A stretch of 64,000 nucleotides of DNA from the NCBI RefSeq assembly GCF_021462225.1, contig NC_061794.1:43338914-43402913 (forward strand), in the 5' to 3' direction. Of this stretch, positions 5,176-61,358 are shown piece after piece. Numbering within the stretch: position 1 is the first letter of the stretch; each line of letters starts with the position of its first letter. The position numbers and the translations under genes are program-made. The notes below the pieces were generated by a model. The model was not told the DNA's origin and did no database searches. It saw nothing but the letters and a program-made list of their open reading frames with translations. The stretch is from Girardinichthys multiradiatus (taxonomy: Eukaryota; Chordata; Actinopteri; Cyprinodontiformes; Goodeidae).

Positions 5176-5683
5176 TCAGCATAATGGTGGACATTTATCC
5201 CATGCTGCCTGATAATTTTACCTATTGGAAGCATATATATATAGTAAAGAAAATTGGTCCAAGCACTGAACCCTGTGGTACTCCACAAGTAACCCTGGGG
5301 TTTGAAGATGATTTGTCATTTACATGAACAAAATGGAATCTGTCAGACAAATAGGATTTAAACCAGCCTAGCGCTGTTCCCTTGATCCCTACAGCATGTT
5401 CCAGCCTTTCTAAGACAATATTGTGATCGACTGGATCAAATGAGGCACTGAGATCTAACAGAACCAGTACAGACATAAGTCCATTATCTAAGGCCATATG
5501 AATATGATTGGTGACGTTTACTAGTGCTGTTTCAGTGCTATGATGAGCCCTGAAACCTAACTGAATTTCTTCAGACAGATCCTTACTGTATGAATGCTCA
5601 CGCACTTGATTAGCAACTATTTTCTTAAGAATTTTAGATAACAACTGAAGATTGGATATAGGTCTGTAATTAATCTTGATCAA
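5176..5683 (-). pseudogene. L2-like LINE reverse transcriptase fragment
   Basis: Minus-strand RT core. It shows NYRPISNLQLLSKILKKIVA, FRAHHSTETALV, motif A as LLDLSASFD, and VPQGSVLGP. The YADD box is encoded near 5176-5190 but in a different frame after a stop. An intact ORF2 would be several times longer. Non-functional. Confidence 0.85.
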
Positions 5684-5783
5684 GAAAGGGTTTCATAAGT
5701 AAAGGTTTATTTACAGCAACCTCAGAGCCTGTAGTACATATCAATTTACTAAGGATAAATTAATCATATCTAATTATGGGTTT

Positions 5784-16549: not shown

Positions 16550-18159
16550 CAGGTCCTTCTCAAAATATTAGCATATTGTGATAAAGTTCATTATTTTCCA
16601 TAATGTCATGATGAAAATTTAACATTCATATATTTTAGATTCATTGCACACTAACTGAAATATTTCAGGTCTTTTATTGTCTTAATACGGATGATTTTGG
16701 CCTACAGCTCATGAAAACCAAAAATTCCTATCTCACAAAATTAGCATATCATTAAAAGGGTCTCTAAACGAGCTATGAACCTAATCATCTGAATCAACGA
16801 GTTAACTCTAAACACCTGCAAAAGATTCCTGGGGCCTTTAAAACTCCCAGCCTGGTTCATCACTCAAAACCCCAATCATGGGTAAGACTGCCGACCTGAC
16901 TGCTGCCCAGAAGGCCACTATTGACACCCTCAAGCAAGAGAGTAAGACACAGAAAGAAATGTCTGAACAAATAGGCTGTTCCCAGAGTGCTGTATCAAGG
17001 CACCTCAGTGGGAAGTCTGTGGGAAGGAAAAAGTGTGGCAGAAAACGCTGCACAACGAGAAGAGGTGACTGGACCCTGAGGAAGATTGTGGAGAAGGGCC
17101 GATTCCAGACCTTGGGGGACCTGCGGAAGCAGTGGACTGAGTCTGGAGTAGAAACATCCAGAGCCACCGTGCACAGGCGTGTGCAGGAAATGGGTTACAG
17201 GTGCCGCATTCTCCAGGTCAAGCCACTTTTGAACCAGAAACAGCGGCAGAAGCGCCTGACCTGGGCTACAGAGAAGCAGCACTGGACTGTTGCTCAGTGG
17301 TCCAAAGTACTTTTTTCGGATGTAAGCAAATTCTGCATGTCATTCAGAAATCAAGGTGCCAGAGTCTGGAGGAAGACTGGGGAGAAGGAAATGCCAAAAT
17401 GCCAGAAGTCCAGTGTCAAGTACCCACAGTCAGTGATGGTCTGGGGTGCCGTGTCAGCTGCTGGTGTTGGTCCACTGTGTTTTATCAAGGGCAGGGTCAA
17501 TGCAGCTAGCTATCAGGAGATTTTGGAGCACTTCATGCTTCCATCTGCTGAAAAGCTTTATGGAGATAAAGATTTCATTTTTCAGCACGACCTGGCACCT
17601 GCTCACAGTGCCAAAACCACTGGTAAATGGTTTACGGACCATGGTATCACTGTGCTCAATTGGCCTGCCAACTCTCCTGACCTGAACCCCATAGAGAATC
17701 TGTGGGATATTGTGAAGAGAACGTTGAGAGACTCAAGACCCAACACTCTGGATGAGCTAAAGGCCGCTATTGAAGCATCCTGGGCCTCCATAAGACCTCA
17801 GCAGTGCCACAGGCTGATTGCCTCCATGCCACGCCGCATTGAAGCAGTCATTTCTGCAAAAGGATTCCCGACCAAGTATTGAGTGCATAACTATACATGA
17901 TTATTTGAAGGTTGACGTTTTTTGTATTAAAAACACTTTTCTTTTATTGGTCGGATGAAATATGCTAATTTTGTGAGATAGGAATTTTGGGTTTTCATGA
18001 GCTGTATGCCAAAATCATCCGTATTAAGACAATAAAAGACCTGAAATATTTCAGTTAGTGTACAATGAATCTAAAATATATGAATGTTAAATTTTCATCA
18101 TTACATTATGGAAAATAATGAACTTTATCACAATATGCTAATATTTTGAGAAGGACCTG
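16550..18159 (+). mobile_element. Complete Tc1-like DNA transposon, copy B (1,610 bp)
   Basis: Both ends are visible: CAGGTCCTTCTCAAAATATT at the left and its inverse, ending GAGAAGGACCTG, at the right, each flanked by TA (16548-16549 and 18160-18161). The inverted repeats run about 200 bases. Removing the element and one TA restores the LINE ORF1 frame (CAGCACC-TA-TTATTGG), so this is a clean insertion later than the LINE. One full-length transposase ORF lies inside. Confidence 0.97.
16878..17882 (+). CDS. Tc1-like transposase, full-length ORF
   Basis: An unbroken 334-codon ORF, the usual length for Tc1-like transposases, encoding the cut-and-paste enzyme that binds the inverted repeats and inserts at TA. 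Residues 1-60 hold a helix-turn-helix ([19 protein letters not shown]) followed by a basic GRKKCGRKR stretch that could serve as AT-hook or nuclear signal. The catalytic triad is intact: Asp in FSDVSKF, Asp in QHDLAPAHS, and Glu 34 residues later in NPIENLW (DD34E). The residue after the first Asp is Val, whereas copy C has Glu there. It has the best claim of the three copies to encode an active enzyme, but activity is unproven. Confidence 0.93.
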   Translation: MGKTADLTAAQKATIDTLKQESKTQKEMSEQIGCSQSAVSRHLSGKSVGRKKCGRKRCTTRRGDWTLRKIVEKGRFQTLGDLRKQWTESGVETSRATVHRRVQEMGYRCRILQVKPLLNQKQRQKRLTWATEKQHWTVAQWSKVLFSDVSKFCMSFRNQGARVWRKTGEKEMPKCQKSSVKYPQSVMVWGAVSAAGVGPLCFIKGRVNAASYQEILEHFMLPSAEKLYGDKDFIFQHDLAPAHSAKTTGKWFTDHGITVLNWPANSPDLNPIENLWDIVKRTLRDSRPNTLDELKAAIEASWASIRPQQCHRLIASMPRRIEAVISAKGFPTKY

Positions 18160-18534
18160 TATTATTGGTACTGGCGCTCAAAGCACCATAAAAGTGGTAA
18201 GAACCAAGCTTGTAACTGTCTTTGCAACTAGATTTCTTCCAGATCTCGATAATGACACACTAACGAACTATCTTAAAGGACAACTTGGGCGTGATGTTGA
18301 GTGCCGGCGTATTGTCACTGGGAACACCAGATATAGTTCATTTAAAGTCAGTGTGGAGTGTGAGAACGTTGCAGAAGTGTATAACCCAGAGCTGTGGCCA
18401 GAGGGTTGGGTGGTGCGCCGTTACTACGAACCACAGAATAAATCTACAATGTCTAAAGGGCCTGGGGTGACCACCTCCAGTGATTCCAGAGGGTTCGATG
18501 GAACGGCTGCAGTGAATTCCTCATAGACCAATTA

Positions 18535-20435
18535 ATGCGTGTTATTTCTTACAATTGCCGGGGACTGCGTGTCAGTAAAACAGCTGGAGATAAAGCACGA
18601 CTTCTGGTTGTGGATAGACAGTTGCAAAAATGTGATATTCTTTGTTTACAAGAAATCTTTTTATCAAAACAGGATTTGGGAAGTCTGAACTGTGTGCAGA
18701 ACATGAGAGCAGACTCCATGGCTGAAAAACTGCTTTGTAATAATGCCATTAGCTTCTGGAATGATGTCAGAGCCTTAAACAGGTCTGCTGCATTACTCCC
18801 CAGTGCCATAGAGGGCATATCTGGGGCTCATAATATAGCAGATCTATGGAGACAGCACTATTCTGCCTTATTTAATTGTGTAAAAAGTGAACCCTATGGA
18901 CTGGGAAACATTGTTAATAATCCTTAGTGAAGTCCAGCAGGCTATAGTGTATTTGTGTCAGAATAAGGCCACGGGTTTGATAGCATTACAGCAGAACATC
19001 TGAAATATGCTAGCCAAAAAGTGGCTGTGCTGCTTGCAATGTGTTTTTCTGGGGTTATGACCCATGGGCAGTTGCCTGATTCCTTATTATCTGTTACCCT
19101 TGTGCCGGTAATTAAGGACAAAGCTAGTAATGTTGGTAGCCTTAATAATTATAGACTAATAGCTTTAGCTAGTGTGATATCTAAAGTATTAGACAAAATC
19201 TTGCTTGGTCGGCTCAATCAGTTTATTAGTACAACAGATAATCAATTTGGTTTTAAAGCCAAGTTGGGAACTGATTTCTGTATGTATGGCCTGAAAGAAG
19301 CAGCAAAAGCAAATCTAAGGAAAAATTCATCGGAGTTAATTGGGTTTATTGATGCCTCTAATGCCTTTGATCGTGTCAACCACTTTAAGTTATTTGACAA
19401 ATTAAAACAGAGAGGTGTTCCAGATATTATTACACGAATTTTAGTTTACTGGTACTCTAACCAGAAAATGCATGTAAAATGGGGCAATGACATCTCTGCT
19501 TCCTTTGGTGTGAGTAATGGTGTGCGTCAGGGTGGACTTCTTTCGCCTGCCTTGTTTAACTTGCATAAGGATGACCTGTCAAAAGAAATGAACCTCTGTA
19601 AAACTGGATGTATGATTGGTGATACTTTGATCAATCACTTCATGTATGCTGATTACCTGGCTGTCCTCTCACCCAGTAGTGCAGGTTTTCAGCAGTTACT
19701 GAACATCTGCTCTGATTATGGGTTGAGTTTTGCAGTATAATGCTAAGAAAACTGTAACTGTACTAGTTTGTAGGACTAAAGCTGACAAACAACTTTGCTT
19801 CCCTGATTTTCTTCTGTCAGGGCAAAAGTTAAATGTTTGTTCCAAAACTAAATATCTGGGTCACTACATCACAGACCAGCTCTGTGATAATGATGACATT
19901 TATCGGCAGTGTCGCATGTTGTACGCCCAGGCAAACGTTCTGGGGAGGAAATTCCATATGTGCACTGATGAGGTAAAAATAAGCCTGTTTAAAGCTTACT
20001 GTACATCCTTGTATACAGCTCCTTTGTGGTGTAAATTTAAAAAAGCTAGTATGCAGAAGCTTAAGGTTGCTTATAATGACTGTTGGAGAATTCTGCTCAA
20101 GAACCCAGGTTCAGCAGTGCAAGTGAGATGTTTTGCAATGCACATGTCAGAACATTCCAGGCACTTGTGAGATATCTGATATATATTTTTATTATATATG
20201 TGTATATTGTACATTGTAAATATGTATATTCTGTAATGCAAAAACAAAACAAAAGAGCAAAGTGTACCTGAGTCAAATTCCTTGTTTGTATGTACGAACT
20301 TGGCAATAAAGCTGATTCTGATAAGTTTATGTGTCGTTTGTGCAGCTCATTGAACAGTCTTATTGTAATGTTTTCACATCCATCTCTTAGTGCGCTAAGA
20401 TACCAGTCGGCTCTGTGGAAACATTGTTATGCAAG
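18535..20435 (+). pseudogene. LINE ORF2 (endonuclease-RT), degraded
   Basis: Starts MRVISYNCRGLR, the beginning of an APE-type endonuclease, with LQEIFLSKQD a few dozen residues on. Most of the endonuclease is missing: by about 18700 the protein is already in the linker (ADLWRQHYSALFNC). The frame breaks near 18927. RT follows at 19021-19740 with NNYRLIALASVISKVLDKIL, GFIDASNAFDRV, NGVRQGGLLSPALF, and YADY in place of the catalytic YADD (about 19645). The C-terminal domain at 19730-20170 is one frame off, and after the insertion at about 20186-20322 it resumes with KFMCRLC and ALRYQSALWKHCY. Confidence 0.8.
20186..20322. mobile_element. Short AT-rich retroelement tail inserted in LINE ORF2
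   Basis: About 137 bases separate coding sequence for RYLIY from KFMCRLC. The insert is A/T-rich and ends TTGGCAATAAAGCTGATTCT, the 3' end typical of a 5'-truncated fish LINE or SINE. CTGATA occurs on both sides and may be the target duplication. Confidence 0.6.
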
Positions 20436-30400: not shown

Positions 30401-33400
30401 CAGATACTGGGAACACTGAATCCAACTGGGATATTTGCCACCCTTAAATAAGCGATGTGGCAAAGAGTGTGGTGGTCCGAAATGTGGCTGTGGATCCTGA
30501 GATGAAAATGAGCTATCTGTCTGAAGAAAGCACCTTAAGAAGCTAGGGAACATAGCTTTCCATTGGCTGGGAAAAGATTCTGGCAAACATTCAGACGTTT
30601 CGAAAGGGGGAAGCTGTCAACACTGTTACCAGTGACTATGATCTTAACATGGAGTATATTCTGGTGGTGGTAGGATATTAATCAAAGAGCTTCACAATCT
30701 TACTGACTGCCTTTCTGTAACAGAAGCAGAGGTTGGGAGTTCAGTGAAGGTTCTAGGACTACAGGTCCTTCTCAAAATATTAGCATATTGTGATAAAGTT
30801 CATTATTTTCCATAATGTCATGATGAAAATTTAACATTCATATATTTTAGATTCATTGCACACTAACTGAAATATTTCAGGTCTTTTATTGTCTTAATAC
30901 GGATGATTTTGGCATACAGCTCATAAAAACCCAAAATTCCTATCTCACAAAATTAGCATATTTCATCCGACCAATAAAAGAAAAGTGTTTTTAATACAAA
31001 AAACGTCAACCTTCAAATAATCATGTACAGTTATGCACTCAATACTTGGTTGGGAATCCTTTTGCAGAAATGACTGCTTCAATGCGGCGTGGCATGGAGG
31101 CAATCAGCCTGTGGCACTGCTGAGGTCTTATGGAGGCCCAGGATGCTTCGATAGCGGCCTTTAGCTCATCCAGAGTGTTGGGTCTTGAGTCTCTCAACGT
31201 TCTCTTCACAATATCCCACAGATTCTCTATGGGGTTCAGGTCAGGAGAGTTGGCAGGCCAATTGAGCACAGTGATACCATGGTCAGTAAACCATTTACCA
31301 GTGGTTTTGGCACTGTGAGCAGGTGCCAGGTCGTGCTGAAAAATGAAATCTTCATCTCCATAAATCTTTTCAGCAGATGGAAGCATGAAGTGCTCCACAA
31401 TCTCCTGATAGCTAGCTGCATTGACCCTGCCCTTGATAAAACACAGTGGACCAACACCAGCAGCTGACACGGCACCCCAGACCATCACTGACTGTGGGTA
31501 CTTGACACTGGACTTCTGGCATTTTGACATTTCCTTCTCCCCAGTCTTCCTCCAGACTCTGGCACCTTGATTTCCGAATGACATGCAGAATTTGCTTTCA
31601 TTCAAAAAAAGTACTTTGGACCACTGAGCAACAGTCCAGTGCTGCTTCTCTGTAGCCCAGGTCAGGCGCTTCTGCCGCTGTTTCTGGTTCAAAAGTGGAA
31701 TGCGGCACCTGTAGCCCATTTCCTGCACACGCCTGGCTCTGGATGTTTCTACTCCAGACTCAGTCCACTGCTTCCGCAGGTCCCCCAAGGTCTGGAATCG
31801 GCCCTTCTCCACAATCTTCCTCAGGGTCCGGTCACCTCTTCTCGTTGTGCAGCGTTTTCTGCCACACTTTTTCCTTCCCACAGACTTCCCACTGAGGTGC
31901 CTTGATACAGCACTCTGGGAACAGCCTATTCGTTCAGACATTTCTTTCTGTGTCTTACCCTCTTGCTTGAGGGTGTCAATAGTGGCCTTCTGGACAGCAG
32001 TCAGGTCGGCAGTCTTACCCATGATTGGGGTTTTGAGTGATGAACCAGGCTGGGAGTTTTAAAGGCCTCAGGAATCTTTTGCAGGTGTTTAGAGTTAACT
32101 CGTTGATTCAGATGATTAGGTTCATAGCTCATTTAGAGACCCTTTTAATGATATGCTAATTTTGTGAGATAGGAATTTTGGGTTTTCATGAGCTGTATGC
32201 CAAAATCATCCGTATTAAGACAATAAAAGACCTGAAATATTTCAGTTAGTGTGCAATGAATCTAAAATATATGAATGTTAAATTTTCATCATGACATTAT
32301 GGAAAATAATGAACTTTATCACAATATGCTAATATTTTGAGAAGGACCTGTATAGTCATGGAGGTGTTTAGAGTTTCTTAGAGAACTGAGCCAGAAAATG
32401 AAACTGATGATTTCCAGACAAGGTGGGAAGTTCAGTTATCTTTGAGTGACTTAAAATAGACATGCTGTTCCTGCACATCTAACAAACCAGCAAGTGAAAA
32501 GGGCTTGTACTTCTTTTCGGATGCCTTCCAGATTTATCCCAGGGGAGCGGTTTTCAGACATGTCCCAGAGGGAGCAGACCTAAGGGCAGAGCAAGTTATG
32601 GTGGAAAGATTTTATTTTCCAGCTGGCTTTAGAAAGCCCAAGTGACCCACAGAAGAGCTACAGGGGGGAGTGAGGGGAAAGGGGGGTGATTTTAGATTAT
32701 TATTTATCATGATGGATGTTCTTTCAGGATTTTGTCATGTCGTTTTCTGTCATCAGATTCAAACAGTTTACACGTGTACACACCTATTATTCATCCACTA
32801 AATAGCACACTTGTCACTCATCAAGTAGTCATCATTTATAGTACTCATACCATCAGGTTTTACATGTTATACAGCTCATCCTGGACCATCCACTTTTCAG
32901 TTGGAGTTTTTGTTTCTAGTTTGTTTTCTGTGTTTTCCTGACTCGGTTTCTCAAGTTGATTTTGAGTAACATTTATTAAAGCCTTTTATTTGCCTCAGGT
33001 CTGCCTCACTCAATCCTGCATCTGGGTCCTACAACTAAAACTTTGACAGGTTTACCCAGGATTTTAGAGCAAATGTAGTACTCTGAGTTGCAAATTACAA
33101 ATCCAGGCTGTTGTATATTTGTCTTTTATTTGTTTTATAAAATCACATTTGTCTTAGTCAAGTGGTAAGTAATCATTAAATGGGTTTATTAAAGTTTATT
33201 TTGGTCAAACAGCTACCATTATCAAGCTACAATTAGAGGTATAAGTAAACATGGACCAAAATTGCTCTTATTCTACATCTAAATCCCAAAATAGTAAGTA
33301 AGTAAAGGAGGTAGAAAAATACATGGAGCTGAGAGGAATTGCTGATTTGGACCGACAGTCCATAAATTTATCCCAGTGATGGAAACATCCAACACAGCTG

Positions 33401-44618: not shown

Positions 44619-47600
44619 TTATGTGGTTGTATGTCTCCAGTAAATCTACTCTTAACAACGGCGTGCTTGGAGTTTTTGTGCTTTGATCAGTGGTCATAAT
44701 TTGTCATATTTTATAAAGGTCAATTGGTCCAAATGGAGATTAGAACCAAAATAATAAAAAATGAGATGCAAAGCCATCTCTTTTTTCTGAGGCGGCTTAG
44801 GTCCGCCAGAAGATGGTGTGGATGTTCTGTTGTGGGCATCATGTTTGCTGTTATGTGCTGGGGCAGCAGCCTGAGGGCCCAGGACTCCAAGAGATCATCA
44901 GGTAGGCTGGCCATGTTGTGGGGGAGAAATCTAGTCAGGCTACCTGGACATTGTGTTGGAGAGGAGAACGAAATGTTGATCTTTTCCTCACATATTCTCC
45001 ATTATTTGATGAACAGTTATAAGAGCTCATTCAGCAAAAAAACTCAGACGGCCTCAATGTAAAACAGAGCGACAGAAAATCATCTCTGCCTGTGCAGTGA
45101 AACTGTCCACTTCTAACCTCTGACAGAACACACCCACAGGACTACAATAATGGAAATAATTGTCTTACTTTGTCTGAATTCCAATTTTAACAGGTGTCTG
45201 TCTTTGCAATATCAAGAATTTCCCCACTGGGATTAATAAAGTAATTCTGATGCTGATTAATCTCTAGAATTAATAAGAAAGAATAAAGTGATGTGCAGTA
45301 GTTTAATTACATGGATAAAAAATGTTTGGTTACAAGATGGAAGTAGGAAGGGATGAGATATAGATACAAATTAGCCAGACAGAACACATTCCTGAAGCTT
45401 CAGCACCACTTATTTAAAGATTTGGGTGAATGAACTGAGTGTGTAGTTTTGACCCTGTGTGCTTCTCAGTTTTAAAATTTACTATTCTATAATAATTCCG
45501 GCAAGGTCAAAGATCAGCTCAAATAAATCATTGTATTCATCAACACGTCTCAGGGGAACCATGTATTGAAGGTTAAACTTGTCAGTGATTGTCATGGTTT
45601 TTTAATTTTTTGCGGGTTCGTCTCCTCCTCTCTCTGGGGTTTTAGGCTGTGGAAGTGCTGAAAGCTGAACGCATCGGACACGGCTACAGAACCCTGGAGG
45701 ACCAAGCCCTATACAAAGATCTGCTAGAAAAAAATATGCACTTTGAAGTAAGCCTTATTTTATTCTCATATATTATGTATATATTCATAACATATAACAT
45801 ATTTCATCTAATATACTAAGTGTTTGCCATCCTCATCTAAGGTGATTTTAGTGTGGAACTCATATAGAAGCAGAAATATTGTGCCCTCTAGTGGAGACAT
45901 CAGTTAACTGAGAGATTGCAGCCATTAGCTCACTCAGTGCTGCCTCTGCTGTTCTCCTTGCAGATGTGTCCTATTTCCAGTAAATGGACAAAGGCGTGCC
46001 CCTCAGACTTCAGCAAACACCCCATCATCAGGTCCGCTTTTTCCCTAACACTAAAATATGGATAAACAGCAAACTAGGATTCATTTGAATCATTTGGGTT
46101 TTATGTTTTGCTTTGAACAGGTTCAGACTGGACAAGGCTAACTACTCCCTGAACACAGATGACCCTCTGATCTTCAACTCCAACCTGGCACTCGACTACA
46201 GCACTGTGTATGAATACATGGGATTCACAGAGGAAGAATTCATACGGGTGGTGAGATCAAATGTAGAGTTTAATAATAGCAGTAGGTCAAAGGGAGAAAC
46301 AATTTAAATGTAGTTAGAAAGGAAAACACGACATTTATATGCCTTTTATCAGCAGGAACTCTGATAAACTCTACAGAATATTCCAACTTAGTTGTATCTA
46401 AAGATTCAAGTTCTTAATTCAGCACAAACTTATTATACCACTATGCACAACACCAAGACCGGAGCAGGCTTGCCTGAAACATGGCATAAGAGCGTAGAAA
46501 AAAATGCTTTGACATTCGGATTTGCACAATTCAGTAAACTCAGAGCTGGAGCAGCTCAACCCTAAAGTAACAAATTTGCCCGCCAGCACCTTTAAAGGTC
46601 AGTGATTATGTTAAACCTTGTTCGCCTAGCCTGCGTGTAAATAAACAAACATCGATGGACGGTTTCCTGTCTGCAGTTGGTGAAATTTAAACTGCAGCTC
46701 TGATAGGCTGCCAAAATAATTCAAAAGCTTTGCAAAAATGTATTTCCGCGCAGGTTTTCTCAGGTCGCACTGCAGCATTTCAGGGAAGTTAAGGTCTCAA
46801 GTTAGTCACTATGGTAACTAATGCTGAACACCCAACCTGCTCCAGACCAGATATCTCAGTAAATTTGATCAGAAAGCAATTACTCCTTGCAGGATCTGAA
46901 GATTAGAAATTACTTGTTACTTGTTTTTCTTCATAAAATACACGTGTCTGACTAAAAAGATTGTTTATTTTATAAAGTGCCTGAGTGCATCCGACTCTCC
47001 AAACCTTTACCTAATGTGTCTGTACATTTATGTCCATACTCACATCTCTTGTAGGTTTTCTTAAGGGTTTATGATCACTAACCAACTATAACCCATTTTA
47101 TGTGGCATTACACAGTGTGGATGGAAGAAAATGGACCTAAAACTTTTATTACATCTCCCTCTGCTGGACTGAGTAGTTTTTATCTTTGTAGTGTTCAATG
47201 TGAATAGGAATTGAAACAAACATTGGTACAAAGATGTTAGGATTGAAGCTTTCTCCAACAGATGACACCTGCAGCATTTAGCACAATAACAAAATTTTAA
47301 ACAGATTCATGCTTTCATAAGTTGGCTGGAATATAGATAAACATATTTTGCCCATTGCCCTTTTTTATGGCCATCTTTCTACTTGCCTCTACAATGTGAT
47401 TGGTCATTTTATTCAAACTCCTCCTACTTTACATGGACATACACATTAAACCATCTTGGAAGTATAGGTTTCGCACCCTGGGGCCACAAATCAAGCCCAA
47501 ATCATTAGTCTTCCACCTCCAGGCTTTAGAGTTGCTATGAAGCGTTTGTGTTGGAAGATGTGTATTATGATTCAAATTCTCCACTTTGGTCTTGTTAAAT

Positions 47601-49569: not shown

Positions 49570-49652
49570 TTAGGACGGGCCCCCGCCTCCCTGGGCGTCT
49601 TGGCTTGTAGAGCCCTCTGCCTCAGGAGCAGGAGAGGCCCCCGGGTCTCCTT
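49570..49652 (-). CDS. pkig: pkig last coding exon
   Basis: Acceptor CTTCTGCAG-type sequence at 49653-49654; the split Glu codon joins with exon 1, then GDPGASPAPEAEGSTSQDAQ, GGGGPS and TAA (49572-49570). Length and the acidic/Ser-rich character fit the variable PKIG C-terminus. A plus-strand ORF across the same bases (49270-49743) is its shadow. Confidence 0.9.
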
Positions 49653-52600
49653 CTGCAGAGAGAAAAATAATAGATGCATTCAGGAAATGAATCATGACAA
49701 TCCTGGGAAAGAAACTTCCTGCAGCGACACAATGTCAACCTGATATGATTCTGTTTCACATATGATCCTTCTCACAAGAGCTGGTCTGATCTCTGCAGGT
49801 CATGGGACACTATCATAACTAAAAAGGAAGTCTGTGCACAATAATACAATGAAAAAGTGCATCAGAGCGGAAAGATTTGAATAATATAAAGGCAAGTCGA
49901 CACCAGTGAGAGTAGAATAATTGAGGGCTGCTGTTCCAACTCATTTAGCACAGAGGCCACAGTGAACTGCCACAGCTGAGAAACCATAGACCTGCATGGG
50001 CTGCTCACCTGCACACTTTCTATTATTATAAAACATCATTACTGTAATGATCATTAGGAAAATAGCTGTTTTCTACTGGTCTGGCTCAGACTAAGGGCCC
50101 CCGCCTACTTAATTGTCTCCTCAGAGGACGGTAAAAGTTCAGCTGCAAAATTGGCCTCAGCAGGAAGTGGACGTTTTTGGATTTAAACAGGATTCTAGAG
50201 TGAAGCTTTAGGATTTCTGATTGGTTAAATAAACACAGTGTTGTATAGGTCCTGGTTCTGCCCAAGTGATTTCAAATTCCCTCCAGGTTGAAGTTCTACT
50301 GCATGAAGAAGTTCCATGTAGAAAAGAGCTCTGATCACAAAAAAAATCAAGAGAAATACTGTTTTTCTATGGCCAGAAGTTTAATACAACCGTTATTATT
50401 ATTTGGCTTTCAATGATTCTTCTGACTGGTTCTTGTTGGAGGTAGACTGAGGATTCAACTCACAGTTTTAATGCATTTTTAAAACCAGAAATGGGTGGAC
50501 AAATTTATACAAATAACTTTACTGTGGATTTTAACTGAACTTTACAAGATCAAAATGATACAGACAGGTTTAAATACATGCATACACCACCACTAATATC
50601 TGGTTAGTTGTGTCCTAGCAAGGCGCAGAGAAACTGCCCAATTTTTGTATCCATCAACAAGGTTCTGGCATAATGCTGGCTGGATATTTGAACACTATTC
50701 TTGGCAAAATTGGTAGGACTCCTAAAGTGGCTGGTTTCCTGGCAGGAACTTGGCACGGTCCATACATTTTCGGTCAAGGCCGTTTCAGAAGCCTAATTTT
50801 AGTCTGTTTAATCCATTCTAAAATAGTTTAGGGTTGTGTTTTGGGTCATTTTCTTTTTGGATCACCCGACAGTGTCCAAGTGCTGGTTTGAGGTGGAGAT
50901 AGACCTCCTTTTTCATTACTTCATCCACGATGTGCAAAGCACCAGTTCAAACAGGCAGCTAAACAGACCTTCACCATGATGCTGCCACCACCATGCGTAA
51001 CAAGTACAGTTTTCTTGGATTTAAAACTCTTTCCTTGACTCCTCCAAACATTCTCAGTCTTTTTCTCATTTGAGCATAAAACTCTTTTTTCCAGAAAACG
51101 TTTGGTTTGTCTGCATGAGCAGATGCAACTTTTAAATCAGGCCTGAAGGTTTTTGATTTTAGAGAGAGGGGCTTCCTTCTTGGTCAGCATGCCCCCAGTT
51201 CACGTTGATGTTAGATTCACACCAGTGTGGACAGAGATACTGATGTTCCAGCATCTTACAACAAGCTCTTGATTATTCCTGATCAAAACTAATCTCTATC
51301 AATATGAGGATGAACGTTTTGGGTCAGGTGAGTGACACCTGGAAACTACTGGATGTTCCAGCGGGTGTGATCCCCAGCACACAGCCATACTGGTTTTGGA
51401 AAGGTTAAAGCAGGCCATAAAAGATCTTTAAGAATTCATCTGACCCTAATAATATTAAACATTTATAGATTGTGTTTAAAAGCTGAGTTTCTGTCATAAG
51501 ACCAAATAATTGAAATAAAGTCACCTATTCCGATAAGACTAATGATCAAATATCTACAACCAGAACTATGTCAGAAATGTGTTGATGGGTACAAAAGGTG
51601 TCTGGTTTATCTGCAGCCTCCTAAGGGACATTTATCAAAATATCAGTAGTGATGTATGTATATATTTAATCCTGTCTGTATAATTTTGAAGCTGTGTGGA
51701 TTAGAAAATAAATTGACATTGACATGAAGCACAATTCTTGATTTTATCCCTCTTAGCTGCAGGCCCAGAAGGAGTGAAATAGATGCACAATAATCTTCCT
51801 AATCTATTCACTGAAGGCACAGAGCTGAAATAATCTTTCATCATCTGTAGAAAAAAGGCCTTCAGACCTGAAAGCCCTTTAACATTATAGACGAGTTTGT
51901 CGAACGGCCACATATAGTATACTCCATCTATACACTGTTACAATATACTCCAACCACATTATTCTGCTGTAGTCTGGTGCTGACACTGAAAATCTGTGGG
52001 TTGCATCTTATTCAAGTTTATCCATAATTTCATCTGACTGAAGAGTGTCTGCCTTATGATAAACATGAAAAAAGATAAGTCTGATTTTTGTGTGAGAGAT
52101 GCAGTGGAAGTGTACACACTGCAGTTAAAATGCCAGCTTTTATAGATGTAAACAAAAGTTCATCCATATAAAAATATTCCTCAAATCTTTTTCCACTCAG
52201 TCAATCACAGTTAATCTGAAAATAAGCAGATATTTCCAAGGGGAAAATGTGAAAAATAAAACACCTGCAATAACCTGCTTGTGTAAAGGTGCACATCCTT
52301 CAACTGAAGGCAACTTGACTTCTTCTCTTGTTTCGTGAAGATGTTTCACTTCTCATACTAAAAGGCCTCTTTAGTTTAGTAGAAAATGACTGGAAGTATC
52401 AGATAAGCTGTAGTCAGGACAATCACACGAATAGTGCTATTAAAGTAACCAGGGGGCGATTAGGACAGGTGAGTCACTGACCCTAGCCTCTATTCAGCTT
52501 AATATTTGGGTCGCTGCTGCTCGGCGATCCAAACATGTCTCCAACGACTCCGTGTGAGGTGTGTTGGTCACATGCCCCAAGGTGGGAACTGTTGTAAAAC

Positions 52601-55600
52601 CTCCTGGCGAGAAAAGTCAAGGATGCAAAGTAGGTGTTAGAAAGATAAAATCTGAGGCCCACTCCTCTGTTTAGGGTTGGGTTTTCATGTTTAACGTAGA
52701 TGACTTCTTTTGTTTGAGCATCTCTTGATTCAGTTTCAACATTCAGTTCTCTTGAGGTAATCCCTAACATCAATAGAAGTAACTGCAAATAAAGCTTAGC
52801 TGTCCTAGTAAGGTTTTCCTGACCTTTCCTGCTCACATCCTTTAGCTCGAATCATAATTCCAAAAGTATATGTGGCACAAGAACTGGACTGTGCATCAAG
52901 AAAACCACACCCACAGAGAGGTATGGTGGTGGCAGCATCATACACTGGTGTTACTTTTCTTCTTAACTTTTTTTGTTAAGTTGAATGAAATAATGACCAA
53001 TTATATTTACCAACCAACTCCTACATTTGTCTAGAAGAGAGATAAAGATAAAAAGGAAGCCCAAACATCCAAATTAACAAAAGGACATTTTCAGTGGAGG
53101 AAACACTGCATGAATACAGGGTGTAGCATGAAAACAGGGTGTAGCATGAAAACATGATGTAGCATGAAAACAGGGCGTAGCATGAAAACAAAGTGTAGCA
53201 GGAAAACAGAGTGCAGTATGAAAACAGAATGTAGCATGACAACAGGGTGTAGGCATGACAACAGAGTGCAGCATGAAAACAGGGTGTAGCATGAAAACAG
53301 GGTGTAGCATGAAAACATGATGTAACATGAAAACAGAGTGTAGAAGGAAAACAGTGTAGCAGGAAAACAGGGTGTAGCAGGAAAACAGGGCGTAGCATGA
53401 AAACATGGTGTAGCATGAAAACATGATGTAGCATGAAAACAGAGTGTAGCAGGAAAACGGTGTAGCAGGAAAACAGGGCGTAGCATGAAAACATGATGTA
53501 GCATGAAAACAGGGTGCAGCATGAAAACAGAGTGTAGCGGGAAAACAGGGCGTAGCATGAAAACATGATGTAGCATGAAAACAGGGGGACAGCATGAAAA
53601 CAGGGTGCAGCATGAAAACAGGGTGCAGCATGAAAACAGGGGGACAACATGAAAACAGGGGGACAGCATGAAAACAGGGTGCAGCATGAAAACAGGGGGA
53701 CAGCATGAAAACAGGGTGCAGTATGAAAACAGGGGGACAGCATGAAAACATGGTGCAGCATGAAAACAGGGTGCAGCATGAAAAAAGAGGGACAACATGA
53801 AAACAGGGTGCAGCATGAAAACAGGGTGCAGCATGAAAACAGGGTGCAGCATGAAAACAGGGGGACAGAATGAAAACAGGGTGAAGCATGAAAACAGGGG
53901 GACAGAATGAAAACAGGGTGAAGCATGAAAACAGGGTGCAGCATGAAAACAGGGGGACAACATGAAAACAGGGAGACAGCATGAAAACAGGGTGCAGCAT
54001 GAAAACAGGGGGACAGAATGAAAACAGGGTGAAGCATGAAAACAGGGTGAAGCATGAAAACAGGGGGACAACATGAAAACAGGGGGACAGCATGAAAACA
54101 GGGTGCAGCATGAAAACAGGGGGACAGAATGAAAACAGGGTGAAGCATGAAAACAGGGTGCAGCATGAAAACAGAGTGTAGCAGGAAAACAGGGTATAGC
54201 ATGAAAACATGATGTAGCATGAAAACAGGGTGCAGCATGAAAACAGAGTGCAGTATGAAAACGGTGCAGCATGAAAACAGAGTGTAGCAGGAAAACAGGG
54301 TGCAGCATGAAAACAGGGGGACAGCATGAAAACAGGGTGCAGCATGAAAACCGGGGACATCATGAAAACAGGGTGCAGCATGAAAACAGGGTGCAGCATG
54401 AAAAAAGAGGGACAACATGAAAACAGGGTGCAGCATGAAAACAGGGCGTAGCATGAAAACGGTGCAGCATGAAAACAGAGTGTAGCAGGAAAACGGTGTA
54501 GCAGGAAAACAGGGCGTAGCATGAAAACATGATGTAGCATGAAAACAGGGTGCAGCATGAAAACAGAGTGTAGCGGGAAAACAGGGCGTAGCATGAAAAC
54601 ATGATGTAGCATGAAAACAGGGGGACAGCATGAAAACAGGGTGCAGCATGAAAACAGGGTGCAGCATGAAAACAGGGGGACAACATGAAAACAGGGGGAC
54701 AGCATGAAAACAGGGTGCAGCATGAAACAGGGGGACAGCATGAAAACAGGGTGCAGTATAAAAACAGGGGGACAGCATGAAAACATGGTGCAGCATGAAA
54801 ACAGGGTGCAGCATGAAAAAAGAGGGACAACATGAAAACAGGGTGCAGCATGAAAACAGGGTGCAGCATGAAAACAGGGTGCAGCATGAAAACAGGGGGA
54901 CAGAATGAAAACAGGGTGAAGCATGAAAACAGGGGGACAGAATGAAAACAGGGTGAAGCATGAAAACAGGGTGCAGCATGAAAACAGGGGGACAACATGA
55001 AAACAGGGGGACAGCATGAAAACAGGGTGCAGCATGAAAACAGGGGGACAGAATGAAAACAGGGTGAAGCATGAAAACAGGGTGAAGCATGAAAACAGGG
55101 GGACAACATGAAAACAGGGGGACAGCATGAAAACAGGGTGCAGCATGAAAACAGGGGGACAGAATGAAAACAGGGTGAAGCATGAAAACAGGGTGCAGCA
55201 TGAAAACAGAGTGTAGCAGGAAAACAGGGTGTAGCATGAAAACATGATGTAGCATGAAAACAGGGTGCAGCATGAAAACAGAGTGCAGTATGAAAACGGT
55301 GCAGCATGAAAACAGAGTGTAGCAGGAAAACAGGACGTAGCATGAAAACGGTGCAGCATGAAAACAGAGTGTAGCAGGAAAACAGGGTGCAGCATGAAAA
55401 CAGGGGGACAGCATGAAAACAGGGTGCAGCATGAAAACAGGGGACATCATGAAAACAGGGTGCAGCATGAAAACAGGGGTGCAGCATGAAAACAGGGTGC
55501 AGCATGAAAACAGGGGGACAGCATGAAAACAGGGGGGCAGCATGAAAATAAGGTGCAGCATGAAAACAGGGGGACAGCATGAAAACAGGGTGCAGCATGA

Positions 55601-58600
55601 AAACAGGGGGACAGCATGAAAACAGGGTGACGCATGAAAACAGTGCAGCATGAAAACATGATGTAGCATGAAAACAGGGGGACAGCATGAAAACATGGTG
55701 CAGCATGAAAACAGGGGGACAACATGAAAACAGGGTGCAGCATGAAAACAGAGTGCAGCATGAAAACAGGGTGCGGCATGAAAACAGGGTGCGGCATGAA
55801 AACAGGGGGACAGCATGAAAACAGGGGGACAGCATGAAAACAGGGTGCAGCATGAAAACGGGGACAGCATGAAAACAGGGTGCAGCATGAAAACAGGGGG
55901 ACAGTTTGAAAACAGGGGGACAGTATGAAAACAGGGGGACAGTATGAAAACAGGGGGACAGCATGAAAACAGGGTGCAGCATGAAAACAGGGTGCAGCAT
56001 GAAAACAGGGTGCAGCATGAAAACAGGGTGCGGCATGAAAACAGGGGGACAGCATGAAAACAGGGGGACAGCATGAAAACAGGGTGCAGCATGAAAACGG
56101 GGACAGCATGAAAACAGGGTGCAGCATGAAAACAGGGGGACAGTTTGAAAACAGGGGGACAGTATGAAAACAGGGGGACAGCATGAAAACAGGGTGCAGC
56201 ATGAAAACAGGGGGACAGCATGAAAACAGGGTGCAGCATGAAAACAGTGCAGCATGAAAACATGATGTAGCATGAAAACAGGGGGACAGCATGAAAACAT
56301 GGTGCAGCATGAAAACAGGGGGACAACATGAAAACAGGGTGCAGCATGAAAACAGAGTGCAGCATGAAAACAGGGAGCGGCATGAAAACAGGGGGACAGC
56401 ATGAAAACAGGGTGCGGCATGAAAACAGGGGGACAGCATGAAAACGGGGACAGCATGAAAACAGGGTGCAGCATGAAAACGGGGACAGCATGAAAACAGG
56501 GTGCAGCATGAAAACAGGGGGACAGTTTGAAAACAGGGGGACAGTATGAAAACAGGGGGACAGTATGAAAACAGGGGGACAGCATGAAAACAGGGTGCAG
56601 CATGAAAACAGGGTGCAGCATGAAAACAGGGTGCAGCATGAAAACAGGGTGCGGCATGAAAACAGGGGGACAGCATGAAAACAGGGGGACAGCATGAAAA
56701 CAGGGTGCAGCATGAAAACGGGGACAGCATGAAAACAGGGTGCAGCATGAAAACAGGGTGCAGCATGAAAACAGGGGGACAGCATGAAAACAGGGGGGCA
56801 GCATGAAAACAGGGTGCAGCATGAAAACAGGGTGCAGCATGAAAACAGGGGGACAGCATGAAAACAGGGTGCAGCATGAAAACAGGGGGACAGCATGAAA
56901 ACAGGGTGCGGCATGAAAACAGGGGGACAGCATGAAAACATGGTGCAGCATGAAAACAGGGGGACAGTTTGAAAACAGGGGGACAGTATGAAAACAGGGG
57001 GACAGCATGAAAACAGGGTGCAGCATGAAAACAGGGGGACAGCATGAAAACGGGGTGCAGCATGAAAACAGGGGGACAGTTTGAAAACAGGGGGACAGTA
57101 TGAAAACAGGGGGACAGTATGAAAACAGGGGGACAGCATGAAAACAGGGTGCAGCATGAAAACAGGGGGGCAGCATGAAAACAGGGTGCAGCATGAAAAC
57201 AGGGGGGCAGCATGAAAACAGGGTGCAGCATGAAAACAGTGTGCAGCATGAAAACAGGGGGACAGCATGAAAACAGGGGGACAGTTTGAAAACAGGGGGA
57301 CAGTATGAAAACAGGGGGACAGCATGAAAACAGGGTGCAGCATGAAAACAGGGGGACAGCATGAAAACAGGGGGGCAGCATGAAAACAGGGTGCAGCATG
57401 AAAACAGGGGGACAGCATGAAAATAGGGTGCAGCATGAAAACAGGGGGACAGCATGAAAACAGGGTGCAGCATGAAAACAGGGGGACAGCATGAAAACAG
57501 GGTGCAGCATGAAAACAGGGGGACAGCATGAAAACAGGGTGCAGCATGAAAACAGGGGGACAGCATGAAAACAGGGTGCAGCATGAAAACAGGGGGACTG
57601 CATGAAAACAGGGTGCAGCATGAAAACAGGGGGACAGCATGAAAACAGGGTGCAGCATGAAAACAGGGGGACAGCATGAAAAAAGGGTGCAGCATGAAAA
57701 CAGGGGGACAGCATGAAAACAGGGTGCAGCATGAAAACAGGGTGCGGCATGAAAACAGGGTGCGGCATGAAAACAGGGGGACAGCATGAAAACAGGGTGC
57801 AGCATGAAAACAGGGGGACAGCATGAAAACAGGGTGCAGCATGAAAACAGGGTGCGGCATGAAAACAGTGTGCGGCATGAAAACAGGGTGCGGCATGAAA
57901 ACAGGGGGACAGCATGAAAACAGGGGGACAGCATGAAAACAGGGTGCAGCATGAAAACGGGGACAGCATGAAAACAGGGTGCAGCATGAAAACAGGGGGA
58001 CAGTTTGAAAACAGGGGGACAGTATGAAAACAGGGTGCAGCATGAAAACAGGGGGACAGCATGAAAACAGGGTGCAGCATGAAAACAGGGGGACAGCATG
58101 AAAATAGGGTGCAGCATGAAAACAGGGGGACAGCATGAAAACAGGGTGCAGCATGAAAACAGGGGGACAGAATGAAAACAGGGGGACAACATGAAAACAG
58201 GGGGACAACATGAAAACAGGGGGACAACATGAAAACAGGGGGACAACATGAAAACAGGGGGACAGCATGAAAACAGGGTGCAGCATGAAAACAGGGGGAC
58301 AACATGAAAACAGGGTGCAGCATGAAAACAGGGGGACAGCATGAAAACAGGGGGACAGCATGAAAACAGGGGGACAGCATGAAAACAGGGTTCAGCATGA
58401 AAACAGGGGGACAGTATGAAAACAGGGGGACAGCATGAAAACAGGGGGGCAGCATGAAAACAGGGGGGCAGCATGAAAACAGGGTGCAGCATGAAAACAG
58501 GGGGACAGCATGAAAACAGGGTGCAGCATGAAAACAGGGGGACAGCATGAAAACAGGGTGCAGCATGAAAACAGGGGGACAGCATGAAAACAGGGTGCAG

Positions 58601-61358
58601 CATGAAAACAGGGGGACAGCATGAAAACAAGGTGCAGCATGAAAACAGGGTGCAGCATGAAAACAGGGTGCGGCATGAAAACAGGGGGACAGCATGAAAA
58701 CAGGGTGCAGCATGAAAACAGGGGGACAGCATGAAAACAGGGTGCCGCATGAAAACAGGGTGCGGCATGAAAACAGGGTGCGGCATGAAAACAGGGTGCG
58801 GCATGAAAACAGGGTGCGGCATGAAAACAGGGGGACAGCATGAAAACAGGGGGAGAGCATGAAAACAGCGTGCAGCATGAAAACGGGGACAGCATGAAAA
58901 CAGGGTGCAGCATGAAAACAGGGGGACAGTTTGAAAACAGGGGGACAGTATGAAAACAGGGGGACAGCATGAAAACAGGGGGGCAGCATGAAAACAGGGG
59001 GGCAGCATGAAAACAGGGTGCAGCATGAAAACAGGGGGACAGCATGAAAACAGGGTGCAGCATGAAAACAGGGGGACAGCATGAAAACAGGGTGCAGCAT
59101 GAAAACAGGGGGACAGCATGAAAACAGGGTGCAGCATGAAAACAGGGGGACAGCATGAAAACAGGGTGCAGCATGAAAACAGGTGGACAGCATGAAAACA
59201 GGGTGCAGCATGAAAACAGGGGGACAGAATGAAAACAGGGGGACAACATGAAAACAGGGGGACAACATGAAAACAGGGGGACAACATGAAAACAGGGGGA
59301 CAACATAAAAACAGGGGGACAGCATGAAAACAGGGTGCAGCATGAAAACAGGGGGACAACATGAAAACAAGGTGCAGCATGAAAACAGGGTGCAGCATGA
59401 AAACAGCGTGTAGCATGAAAACAGCGTGTAGCATGAAAACAGGGGGACAGCATGAAAACAGGGTGCAGCATGAAAACAGGGGGACAACATGAAAACAGGG
59501 TGCAGCATGAAAACAGGGTGCAGCATGAAAACAGCGTGTAGCATGAAAACAGGGGGACAGCATGAAAACAGGGTGCAGCATGAAAACAGGGGGACAACAT
59601 GAAAACAGGGTGCAGCATGAAAACAGGGTGCAGCATGAAAACAGGGGGACAGCATGAAAACAGGGTGCAGCATGAAAACAGGGGGACAGCATGAAAACAG
59701 GGTGCAGCATGAAAACAGGGGGACAGAATGAAAACAGGGGGACAACATGAAAACAGGGGGACAACATGAAAACAGGGGGACAACATGAAAACAGGGTGCA
59801 GCATGAAAACAGGGGGACAACATGAAAACAGGGTGCAGCATGAAAACAGGGTGCAGCATGAAAACAGCGTGTAGCATGAAAACAGGGGGACAGCATGAAA
59901 ACAGGGTGCAGCATGAAAACAGGGGGACAACATGAAAACAGGGTGCAGCATGAAAACAGGGTGCAGCATGAAAACAGCGTGTAGCATGAAAACAGGGGGA
60001 CAGCATGAAAACAGGGTGCAGCATGAAAACACGGGGACAACATGAAAACAGGGTGCAGCATGAAAAGAGGGTGCAGCATGAAAACAGGGGGACAGCATGA
60101 AAACAGGGTGCAGCATGAAAACAGGGGGACAGCATGAAAACAGGGTGCAGCATGAAAACAGGGGGACAGAATGAAAACAGGGGGACAACATGAAAACAGG
60201 GGGACAACATGAAAACAGGGTGCAGCATGAAAACAGGGGGACAGCATGAAAACAGGGGGACAGCATGAAAACAGGGTGCAGCATGAAAACAGGGGGACAG
60301 CATGAAAACAGCATGTAGCATGAAAACAGGGTGCAGCATGAAAACAGGGTGCAGCATGGAAACAGGGTGTAGCATGGTTTCCAAACAAAGAACAGCAAAT
60401 CACGCAACTGAAACAAACTGTGCTTCAACATAGGATCAGTTTAAAGGTGTAACATTTAGGTTATGGCTTTTGTGAGTTTATTACGTTTTTGCTCAAAAAA
60501 TATTTTGGTGAAATTATACATCAGAGCTTCTCATCATTTCTATATCAATGTTTGTTGGACAGTAGAACAAGGCTAGTTTGACTTGTTTTGAGAGGTTGCA
60601 CAGAAAAAAACCTTTTCACTCAGAAAAATATGGCAGCAGAATTTGGATTTGCAAAGCTGCGTCTGATTATGCTACAGGACTCCTGTAACCATGTTCTGTT
60701 TCAGACAGAAGAAAAAATTGAGATATTTGGCCACATTGCAAAACACCAAATTTGGAAAAAGCCAAATACAGAACATAAGCATAAATACCTCTTACCAACA
60801 GTCAACGGTGGTGGAGGGGTGATGATTTGGACTCGTTTTTGAAGCCACAAGCTTTTATTTAATCACAGGTAGGAATCCGTCCGACAGGCAAAATTTGCCA
60901 CAAAAAAAAACACTGAAAAAGTCGTAAAGCAAATGACTGCTTCCAGTTCTAGTTTTTAAAAGGTTATTGTACAAGTTTGAATTAAGGGGTCTACAAAATT
61001 TTCATACAGGCTTTCTATTTTGGCTTCAGATCTATAGATCTGGATTTAAATAATCTTAGAACCTGTTAAAGACCAGATCATAAAGGGTGCCTTTTTCTTT
61101 CCCAATTTCTGCATGTAGAAATGTAGATTTAGGCTCATTTGCTGGTGTACAGCAAGTACAACAGTAGTTACTGATATTGGACAGATGTCGCAGGTTCCAC
61201 TCACCTGCAGCCTTCAGATCCATCTCTGCCATGTCTTTGGTGAGCTCGCTCGTGCTCGCTGCAACCGTCCCCTCCCCTGCGATGTCAGGCACTGCGTTCC
61301 TGCGGCCTGTGCGATCACAGTTGATGAAATCTGAGTACGACGTCTCCACGTCCATCAT
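49570..61358 (-). CDS. pkig: cAMP-dependent protein kinase inhibitor gamma
   Basis: Small heat-stable inhibitor that binds the free catalytic subunit of PKA as a pseudosubstrate and exports it from the nucleus. CDS is the join of 61358-61205 and 49652-49570 on the minus strand: 237 nt, 78 residues (human 76). MMDVETSYSDF opens the protein. The pseudosubstrate site RTGRRNAV has Arg16, Arg19 and Arg20 and Ala22 in place of the phosphorylatable Ser, and Phe11 is the upstream contact. A hydrophobic pattern around residues 39-48 (ELTKDMAEMDL) fits the leucine-rich export signal. The tail is low-complexity (PAPEAEGSTSQ). The intron is about 11.6 kb and contains the giant minisatellite. Convergent with ada, as in human from memory. 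Confidence 0.95.
49660..50475. other. pkig: pkig intron, unassigned
   Basis: No gene or repeat recognised. Confidence 0.4.
50480..51500 (-). mobile_element. Decayed Tc1-like element (pkig intron)
   Basis: Plus-strand CACCATGATGCTGCCACCAC (about 50972) is the reverse of the GGTGGTGGCAGCATCATGG box (GGSIMxW) typical of Tc1-like transposases. Neighbouring text (AGTTTTCTTGGATTTAAAAC, CTTTTTCTCATTTGAGCATA) continues the reversed reading. Many stops and no intact tips. Confidence 0.6.
51505..52325. other. pkig: pkig intron, unassigned
   Basis: No gene or repeat recognised. Confidence 0.4.
52330..52840 (-). mobile_element. Penelope-like element fragment
   Basis: The minus-strand ORF 52836-52483 contains KEVIYVKHENPTLNRGVGLR then FYLSNTYFASL, matching the segment after the GIY-YIG endonuclease core of Penelope-like retroelements (EAIYV...PSLNRGGGLRHxLSxTYNAVL). 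The adjacent plus-strand TTCTCTTGTTTCGTGAAGAT then GTTTCACTTCTCAT is the reversed 3' end often seen with these elements. RT is absent. Confidence 0.6.
52855..52990 (+). mobile_element. Short Tc1-like transposase fragment
   Basis: GTATGGTGGTGGCAGCATCA (52921) is the conserved GGGS box coding sequence; the preceding AACTGGACTGTGCATCAAGA fits as well. It ends just before the minisatellite. Confidence 0.5.
53107..60375. repeat. Giant 18/19-bp minisatellite in the pkig intron
   Basis: About 7.27 kb of tandem units sharing GCATGAAAACAGGG, roughly 390 copies. The two main forms are an 18-mer (GTGCAGCATGAAAACAGG) and a 19-mer (GGGACAGCATGAAAACAGG). They often alternate, giving a 37-base dimer. Variants cluster: TAGCAGGAAAACAGAGTG and AACATGATG at the left end, CGGCATG, CAGTTTG and CAGTATG in the middle, CAACATG towards the right. 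The plus strand is rich in A and G; nearly every unit has a run of 3-6 G. The minus strand has no stop codon in any frame for most of the array, which yields spurious ORFs up to 2,460 codons. Confidence 0.98.
53410..55446. repeat. Higher-order duplication of about 1.04 kb within the minisatellite
   Basis: The order of variant units in about 53410-54365 recurs in about 54446-55446. Landmarks: AGTGTAGCGGGAAAAC at 53531 and 54567 (shift 1,036), and GCAGGAAAACAGGGT at 54181 and 55216 (shift 1,035). The one-base difference comes from a missing A near 54724. The second copy has about three extra units near its end. Confidence 0.85.
60540..61080 (+). mobile_element. Tc1-like remnant right of the minisatellite
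   Basis: The frame at 60660-60842 reads CNHVLFQTEEKIEIFGHIAK, IWKKPNTEHKHKYLLP, then [11 protein letters not shown], the decayed (S)DETKIELFG...VWRKPN...HGGGSIMLWGCF region of a Tc1-like transposase. Sequence near 61055-61075 (ACCTGTTAAAGACCAGATCA) matches that at 41405, so it is the same family as 40860-41445. Catalytic C-terminus missing. Confidence 0.7.

What the first reader, a model, noticed from the sequence alone, without database searches (positions are those of the whole stretch)
53107..60375. A 7.3-kb minisatellite of 18/19-base units fills a pkig intron
About 390 tandem units around GCATGAAAACAGGG form one of the longest single-motif blocks one would expect inside a vertebrate gene. 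The array lies between the two coding exons of pkig, so it must be transcribed with the pre-mRNA. I do not recognise the motif as a named satellite.
Basis: seen in the sequence. Interest (0 to 1): 0.75.

Follow-up and report, generated by a model that had tools for sequence, protein, structure and literature searches.

The report
Long intronic minisatellite in fish pkig
A 7.3-kb stretch of about 396 near-identical 18- and 19-base repeats sits inside an intron of the pkig gene in a fish genome; it was found at this one place only and looks like a long but ordinary minisatellite that grew where it stands.

Summary
TRF finds one array at 53108-60376 (7,269 bp), which splits into 396 units: 227 of the 18-base type, 169 of the 19-base type. 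It lies between coding exons 61358-61205 and 49652-49570 of minus-strand pkig and fills 62.9% of an 11,552-bp intron. In the window's own 1.15-Gb assembly a 32-mer with up to 3 mismatches matches 192 times forward, 0 reverse; the window alone holds 192. So it is a single-locus minisatellite, not a dispersed satellite. Units are more varied (inferred older) at the low-coordinate end, though not smoothly so. Blocks of 0.35-0.86 kb recur at over 99% identity. Both suggest growth in place by slippage and unequal exchange or conversion. The sense strand has 1 AG, none of four donor/poly(A) words tested, and one wholly stop-free frame, but a mutation-spectrum null shows no selection for this. No function was found; expression, allele variation and other fish were not testable. 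Nearest kind: human intronic VNTRs (ABCA7, TERT VNTR6-1, CACNA1C TRACT). Verdict: real, a new member of a known kind, modest interest.

The parts
53108..60376 (.). Tandem array of 396 units of 18/19 bases (consensus GCATGAAAACAGGGTGCA and GCATGAAAACAGGGGGACA), often alternating as a 37-base dimer
   Evidence: TRF; segmentation; single locus
53108..53464 (.). Low-coordinate end: first 20 units, all of the 18-base type, furthest from the consensus (mean edit distance 2.65)
   Evidence: the first 26 units are of the 18-base type
56745..60371 (.). More uniform part of the array (20-unit block means 0.25-0.75)
   Evidence: distinct unit types 39, 21 and 25 of 132 units by thirds
53431..54286 (.). 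Block of 47 units that recurs at 54467-55321 (43 of 47 units identical; 852 identities, 3 mismatches, 1 gap)
54467..55321 (.). Second copy of the 47-unit block
59003..59183 (.). Longest perfect tract of period 37 (181 bases)
53021..60424 (-). Stop-free reading frame of 2,467 codons on the pkig sense strand; taken as a by-product of the motif, not as a gene
   Evidence: no protein relative
61205..61358 (-). pkig first coding exon (from ATG to the GT donor)
   Evidence: PF02827; homologues
49570..49652 (-). pkig last coding exon (AG acceptor to stop)
49653..61204 (-). pkig intron of 11,552 bp, 62.9% array; the array begins 828 bases after the donor and ends 3,455 bases before the acceptor

Best explanation
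It is a single-locus intronic minisatellite (VNTR class). A short 18-base tandem of the GTGTAGCATGAAAACAGG kind began in the pkig intron. A 19-base variant arose in it, and mixed 18+19 (37-base) tracts were amplified. Small steps (slippage) and block steps of 0.35-0.86 kb (unequal sister exchange or synthesis-dependent conversion) enlarged it, mostly away from the low-coordinate end, which keeps the oldest units. It is transcribed within the pkig pre-mRNA as a C/U-rich, weakly structured stretch and removed by splicing. It is tolerated because in this orientation the motif offers almost no AG acceptors, none of the donor words tested and no poly(A) signals. Shown: the array, its single locus, its unit structure, the uneven spread of variants, the block duplications, the lack of those signals. 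Inferred: mechanism and direction of growth, transcription, tolerance, neutrality.
For: Array and unit anatomy. A 32-mer: 192 matches in the assembly and 192 in the window; an 18-base-type 25-mer: 196 and 196. 52 of 52 BLAST matches are at the array (one candidate region scored). Gradient: block rho -0.78, reached by 2 of 5,001 block permutations; distinct unit types 39, 21 and 25 of 132 by thirds. Nine block repeats score above 18, the best 108, against at most 13.4 in 100 unit shuffles; the three best pairs differ at 0.5-0.6%. Sense-strand AG 1 in 7,269 bases against 63.5 per kb in the rest of the intron; GTAAG, GTGAG, AATAAA and ATTAAA 0. Sense RNA of 297 bases folds no better than shuffles, z +1.60. 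The lack of AG and stops fits the motif alone.
Against: The gradient is measured against consensus units that the more uniform part dominates, and it is not smooth: blocks at 54199 and 55288 rise again to 1.78 and 1.40; the count of distinct types is less open to this bias. GT dinucleotides are more frequent in the array (80.3 per kb) than in the rest of the intron (56.3), so only the longer donor words are missing. Variation between individuals, the defining VNTR property, was not measured. No expression data. The right flank's search for dispersed copies did not complete, so an origin in a mobile element is not excluded on that side.
Confidence: 0.85

Rival explanations
1. Dispersed satellite or repeat family, of which this is one island.
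For: Some fish genomes hold abundant minisatellite families, e.g. a centromeric 77-nt one in Nothobranchius furzeri (PMC2688266, passages).
Against: 192 genome-wide matches against 192 in the window, and 196 against 196; 0 reverse; backward-pattern controls 0. Withheld or unassembled sequence, and units more than 3 mismatches away, are not covered.
Confidence: 0.03
2. Assembly artefact: the array length or its duplicated blocks are not real.
For: Blocks of 0.35-0.86 kb repeat at over 99% identity, where assemblers can err.
Against: The window has no N; the assembly has 72 contigs for 1.15 Gb; each of the three best block pairs differs at 2 to 4 sites; 68 distinct units occur. Read data are not held.
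Confidence: 0.08
3. Regulatory intronic VNTR: array length or composition tunes pkig splicing or expression, as reported for TERT and associated at CACNA1C.
For: Position in the intron between the coding exons; human intronic VNTRs with effects or associations (abstracts); hundreds of repeated RNA words, UGUU 404 and CCUG 335; 5.6% of plus-strand 25-base windows reach G4Hunter 1.2 against 0.39% in the rest of the window.
Against: No conservation or allele data; no sign of selection on AG or stop content; sense RNA weakly structured; no G3+ four-run match with loops up to 12, whereas TERT VNTR6-1 is reported to form G-quadruplexes.
Confidence: 0.1
4. Coding or exonised repeat: the 2,467-codon open frame is translated.
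For: One sense-strand frame has no stop through the whole array.
Against: Unit lengths of 18 and 19 shift the frame; all three sense frames are nearly stop-free (0, 1 and 2 stops), which follows from the motif; stop-making changes seen are 2 against 3.1 expected (P(<=observed) 0.34); an idealised translation of the repeat scored no relative among 1,670 candidates.
Confidence: 0.01

Closest known systems
CACNA1C TRACT intronic VNTR (human)
   Same: Intronic tandem array, alleles of about 6 and 24 kb, dominant unit variants one change apart, growth thought to run through perfect tracts (PMC13131567, abstract and one section)
   Different: 30-base unit of other sequence; allele data and expression associations exist there, none here
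ABCA7 VNTR (human)
   Same: 25-base unit with frequent substitutions and insertions, about 12 to 400 units, up to more than 10 kb (PMC6857246, passages; that it is intronic is recalled)
   Different: High GC, variable among people and disease-linked; this array is 49.1% GC
TERT VNTR6-1 (human intron 6)
   Same: 38-base unit in an intron, close to the 37-base dimer here (PMC11830802, abstract)
   Different: 24 to 66.5 repeats, reported to form G-quadruplexes and to switch splicing; here no G3+ four-run match with loops up to 12
MSY1 minisatellite (human Y)
   Same: Ordered unit variants; conversion or slippage proposed as mutation mechanisms (PMC2599865, passages)
   Different: MSY1 never shows units of other than 25 bases; here 16-, 17-, 18- and 19-base units occur
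Intronic minisatellites of C. elegans (CeRep25B and a 19/20-base one)
   Same: Minisatellites found in introns (PMC4039745, passages)
   Different: Found at several genes; this motif is at one locus

Membership tests
Minisatellite | Head-to-tail tandem units of roughly 6-100 bases | tested here: met
   18/19-base units, 396 copies
VNTR | Copy number varies among individuals | not testable with these tools
   One assembly only, no reads
VNTR | Single locus | tested here: met
   192 matches in the assembly, 192 in the window; 196 and 196 for a second pattern
Dispersed or centromeric satellite DNA | Many or very large arrays across chromosomes | tested here: not met
   No match outside the array in the searchable assembly at up to 3 mismatches
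Repeat inside a transposable element | Flanks and motif recur together elsewhere | tested here: inconclusive
   Left flank: among 40 scored of 201 candidates, 39 matches elsewhere, all confined to 52600-52714 and none next to the array; the right-flank search did not complete
G-quadruplex VNTR (TERT type) | Four G3+ runs with short loops | tested here: not met
   0 matches with loops up to 7 or up to 12, 505 with loops up to 15; mean G4Hunter 0.69; 5.6% of 25-base windows at 1.2 or more, against 0.39% in the rest of the window
Regulatory intronic VNTR | Length or sequence alters host-gene splicing or expression | not testable with these tools
   No RNA or allele data

The most novel reading that the evidence does not exclude
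The array makes pkig intron RNA into a dense binding platform: UGUU 404 times, CCUG 335 times and YGCY 345 times (213 in letter shuffles) in a weakly structured, nearly AG-free stretch. It could hold CELF- or MBNL-like proteins and so tune pkig splicing or bind such factors in trans, with array length as the dial. Which proteins bind these words is recalled, not tested.
Probability: 0.05. Interest if true: 0.6.

Novelty: new member of a known kind. Interest (0 to 1): 0.25.

Why it matters
It is a clean single-locus case for watching how a minisatellite grows: a diverged end, a more uniform side, a second unit type that arose and spread, and recent block duplications, all inside the intron of a gene with close relatives in many fish. 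It also shows how a motif nearly free of splice-acceptor and poly(A) signals on one strand can fill most of an intron. Neither point overturns anything known.

Tried and rejected
Selection against splice acceptors or stops on the sense strand: rejected. Among 40 distinct substitution types seen in 375 of 396 units (21 units whose length differs from their type were left out), 2 were counted as able to make AG against 1.9 expected (P(<=observed) 0.71) and 2 as able to make a stop against 3.1 expected (0.34). Distinct types stand in for independent events, so the test is weak.

Structure: the sense RNA of 297 bases folds no better than shuffles (z +1.60; 193 of 200 shuffles fold at least as well). 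The plus strand as DNA folds better than all 200 shuffles (z -3.15); not followed up.

Polypyrimidine-tract words: YCUY is depleted in the sense strand, 15 against 571.5 in letter shuffles, which speaks against a PTB-type platform (that PTB binds such words is recalled).

Known RNA families: 0 matches at gathering score in the window. tRNA and tmRNA, bacterial-code scan: 0. Phage and plasmid collections: no match (these searches mask simple repeats). Viral contigs: 0 exact matches to the 32-mer. Literature: 0 papers hold any of three strings of the motif; five papers hold 3 of 4 PKIG, intron and repeat terms, and 'tandem repeat' occurs in none of the five. These searches cover only the held open-licence PMC library.

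Baseline for long arrays: 20 stretches of 10 kb from the same assembly, 2 beside the window and 18 elsewhere; one (L040) reads wholly N, so 19 are usable. Of 40 TRF rows, 27 have a period of 10 or more and 2 of these are 500 bases or longer; both describe one ATCT/ATCC tract of up to 3.3 kb in L032. No other minisatellite of 500 bases or more was seen in 190 kb. The ten-base core CATGAAAACA occurs once in this sample (L029), about what chance allows (my estimate). The sample is too small to rank a 7.3-kb array.

Full report
What is there. TRF reports a single strong tandem array at 53108-60376, described about equally well with a period of 37 (198.1 copies, score 9833) or 18 (396.3 copies, score 9741). 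A dynamic-programming split gives 396 units, 219 of 18 bases, 161 of 19, 9 of 16 and 7 of 17, with 68 distinct sequences; GCATGAAAACAGGGTGCA and GCATGAAAACAGGGGGACA occur 101 times each. The two types often alternate (neighbour pairs aa 114, ab 112, ba 112, bb 57), which explains the 37-base period. The longest perfect tract of period 37 is 181 bases.

Where it lies. On the minus strand, the coding exons 61358-61205 and 49652-49570 join to a 78-aa PKIG protein; the intron begins GTGAG and ends CAG. Pfam PKI matches at 1.7e-26. A protein search found 220 matches and listed 120, the first two being Austrofundulus (89% identity over 94% of the query) and Poecilia (96% over 100%). The source is thus a ray-finned fish, probably a cyprinodontiform (inference). 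The intron is 11,552 bp and the array is 62.9% of it, 828 bases from the donor and 3,455 from the acceptor.

One locus. The window lies in an assembly of 1,149,971,962 bases in 72 contigs; a 201-base probe gave 52 matches, all at the array, with one candidate region scored. Because that search reports lower bounds, I used patterns. A 32-mer with up to 3 mismatches gave 192 forward, 0 reverse, and 0 for the backward control on either strand (about 100 places listed, the counts whole); the window alone holds 192. A 25-mer of the presumed older unit form gave 196 and 0, control 0 and 0, and the window alone holds 196. That no match lies elsewhere follows from the equal counts. Units more than 3 mismatches away, and withheld or unassembled sequence, are not covered.

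History. Mean edit distance to the nearer consensus is 2.65 in the first 20 units and 0.25-0.75 in the blocks from 56745 on; in between it is uneven, with 1.78 at 54199 and 1.40 at 55288. Block rho is -0.78, reached by 2 of 5,001 permutations, and distinct types per third are 39, 21 and 25 of 132 units each. The first 26 units are all of the 18-base type. Nine block repeats score above 18. The three best are 47 units (852 identities, 3 mismatches, 1 gap), 19 units (346, 0, 2) and 19 units (349, 2, 0). The best score is 108 against at most 13.4 in 100 unit shuffles. I read this as slippage plus unequal exchange or conversion within one locus. The CACNA1C authors propose growth through perfect tracts that mutations then break up (PMC13131567, one section). 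Which process acted here is inferred.

On the transcript. The sense strand is 41% T and 34% C. It has AG once in 7,269 bases, no GTAAG, GTGAG, AATAAA or ATTAAA, and frames with 0, 1 and 2 stops; one frame stays open for 2,467 codons with its flanks. GT is more frequent in the array than in the rest of the intron, 80.3 against 56.3 per kb. I tested whether the missing AGs and stops show selection. Drawing 40 distinct substitutions from the observed spectrum gives 1.9 AG-making and 3.1 stop-making changes on average, against 2 and 2 seen. So the clean sense strand can be a property of the motif alone. A search with an idealised translation of the repeat scored none of 1,670 candidates. The sense RNA has no unusual fold. 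G-quadruplex patterns with loops up to 12 are absent, though G4Hunter scores of 1.2 or more are commoner in the array (5.6% of 25-base windows) than in the rest of the window (0.39%).

How unusual. The array's skews (AT 0.62, GC 0.38) are uncommon: 1 of 190 sampled 1-kb windows reached 0.35 on both. In 190 kb of sampled sequence no other minisatellite of 500 bases or more appeared, though one microsatellite tract of 3.3 kb did. Long VNTRs inside genes are known in people: ABCA7 over 10 kb (PMC6857246, passages; intronic by recall), CACNA1C 3-30+ kb (PMC13131567, abstract), TERT intron 6 with 38-base units (PMC11830802, abstract). Three strings of this motif appear in no held paper. The array is therefore a new member of a known kind.

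Verdict. The most likely reading is a neutral, locally grown, single-locus minisatellite that the gene tolerates. A regulatory role is open but has no direct evidence here.

Noticed in passing
16842-17882 (+) and 31039-32058 (-): Two closely alike (by eye) Tc1-type transposase reading frames of 346 and 339 aa (DDE_3 domain in both), in opposite directions about 13 kb apart; the second has small deletions by eye.
   Followed up: partly
18967-19740 (+): Open frame with a reverse transcriptase domain (PF00078, 6.1e-25); further retrotransposon-like frames at 5222-5692 (-) and 18122-20170 (+), by eye.
   Followed up: partly
46089-46307 (+): Adenosine deaminase exon (PF00962, 5.8e-09), convergent with pkig; a further ada exon near 48172 by eye.
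   Followed up: partly
52600-52714: About 111 bases of the left flank recur at 39 other places of the assembly (40 of 201 candidates scored) at 78-87% identity: a dispersed repeat of unnamed kind.
   Followed up: no
L032:4794-8120: ATCT/ATCC microsatellite tract of about 3.3 kb in one of 19 readable sampled stretches of the same assembly, so long simple arrays may not be rare in this genome.
   Followed up: no
59400-59696 (+ strand DNA): The plus strand folds better as single-stranded DNA than all 200 shuffles (z -3.15), while the minus strand as RNA does not.
   Followed up: no
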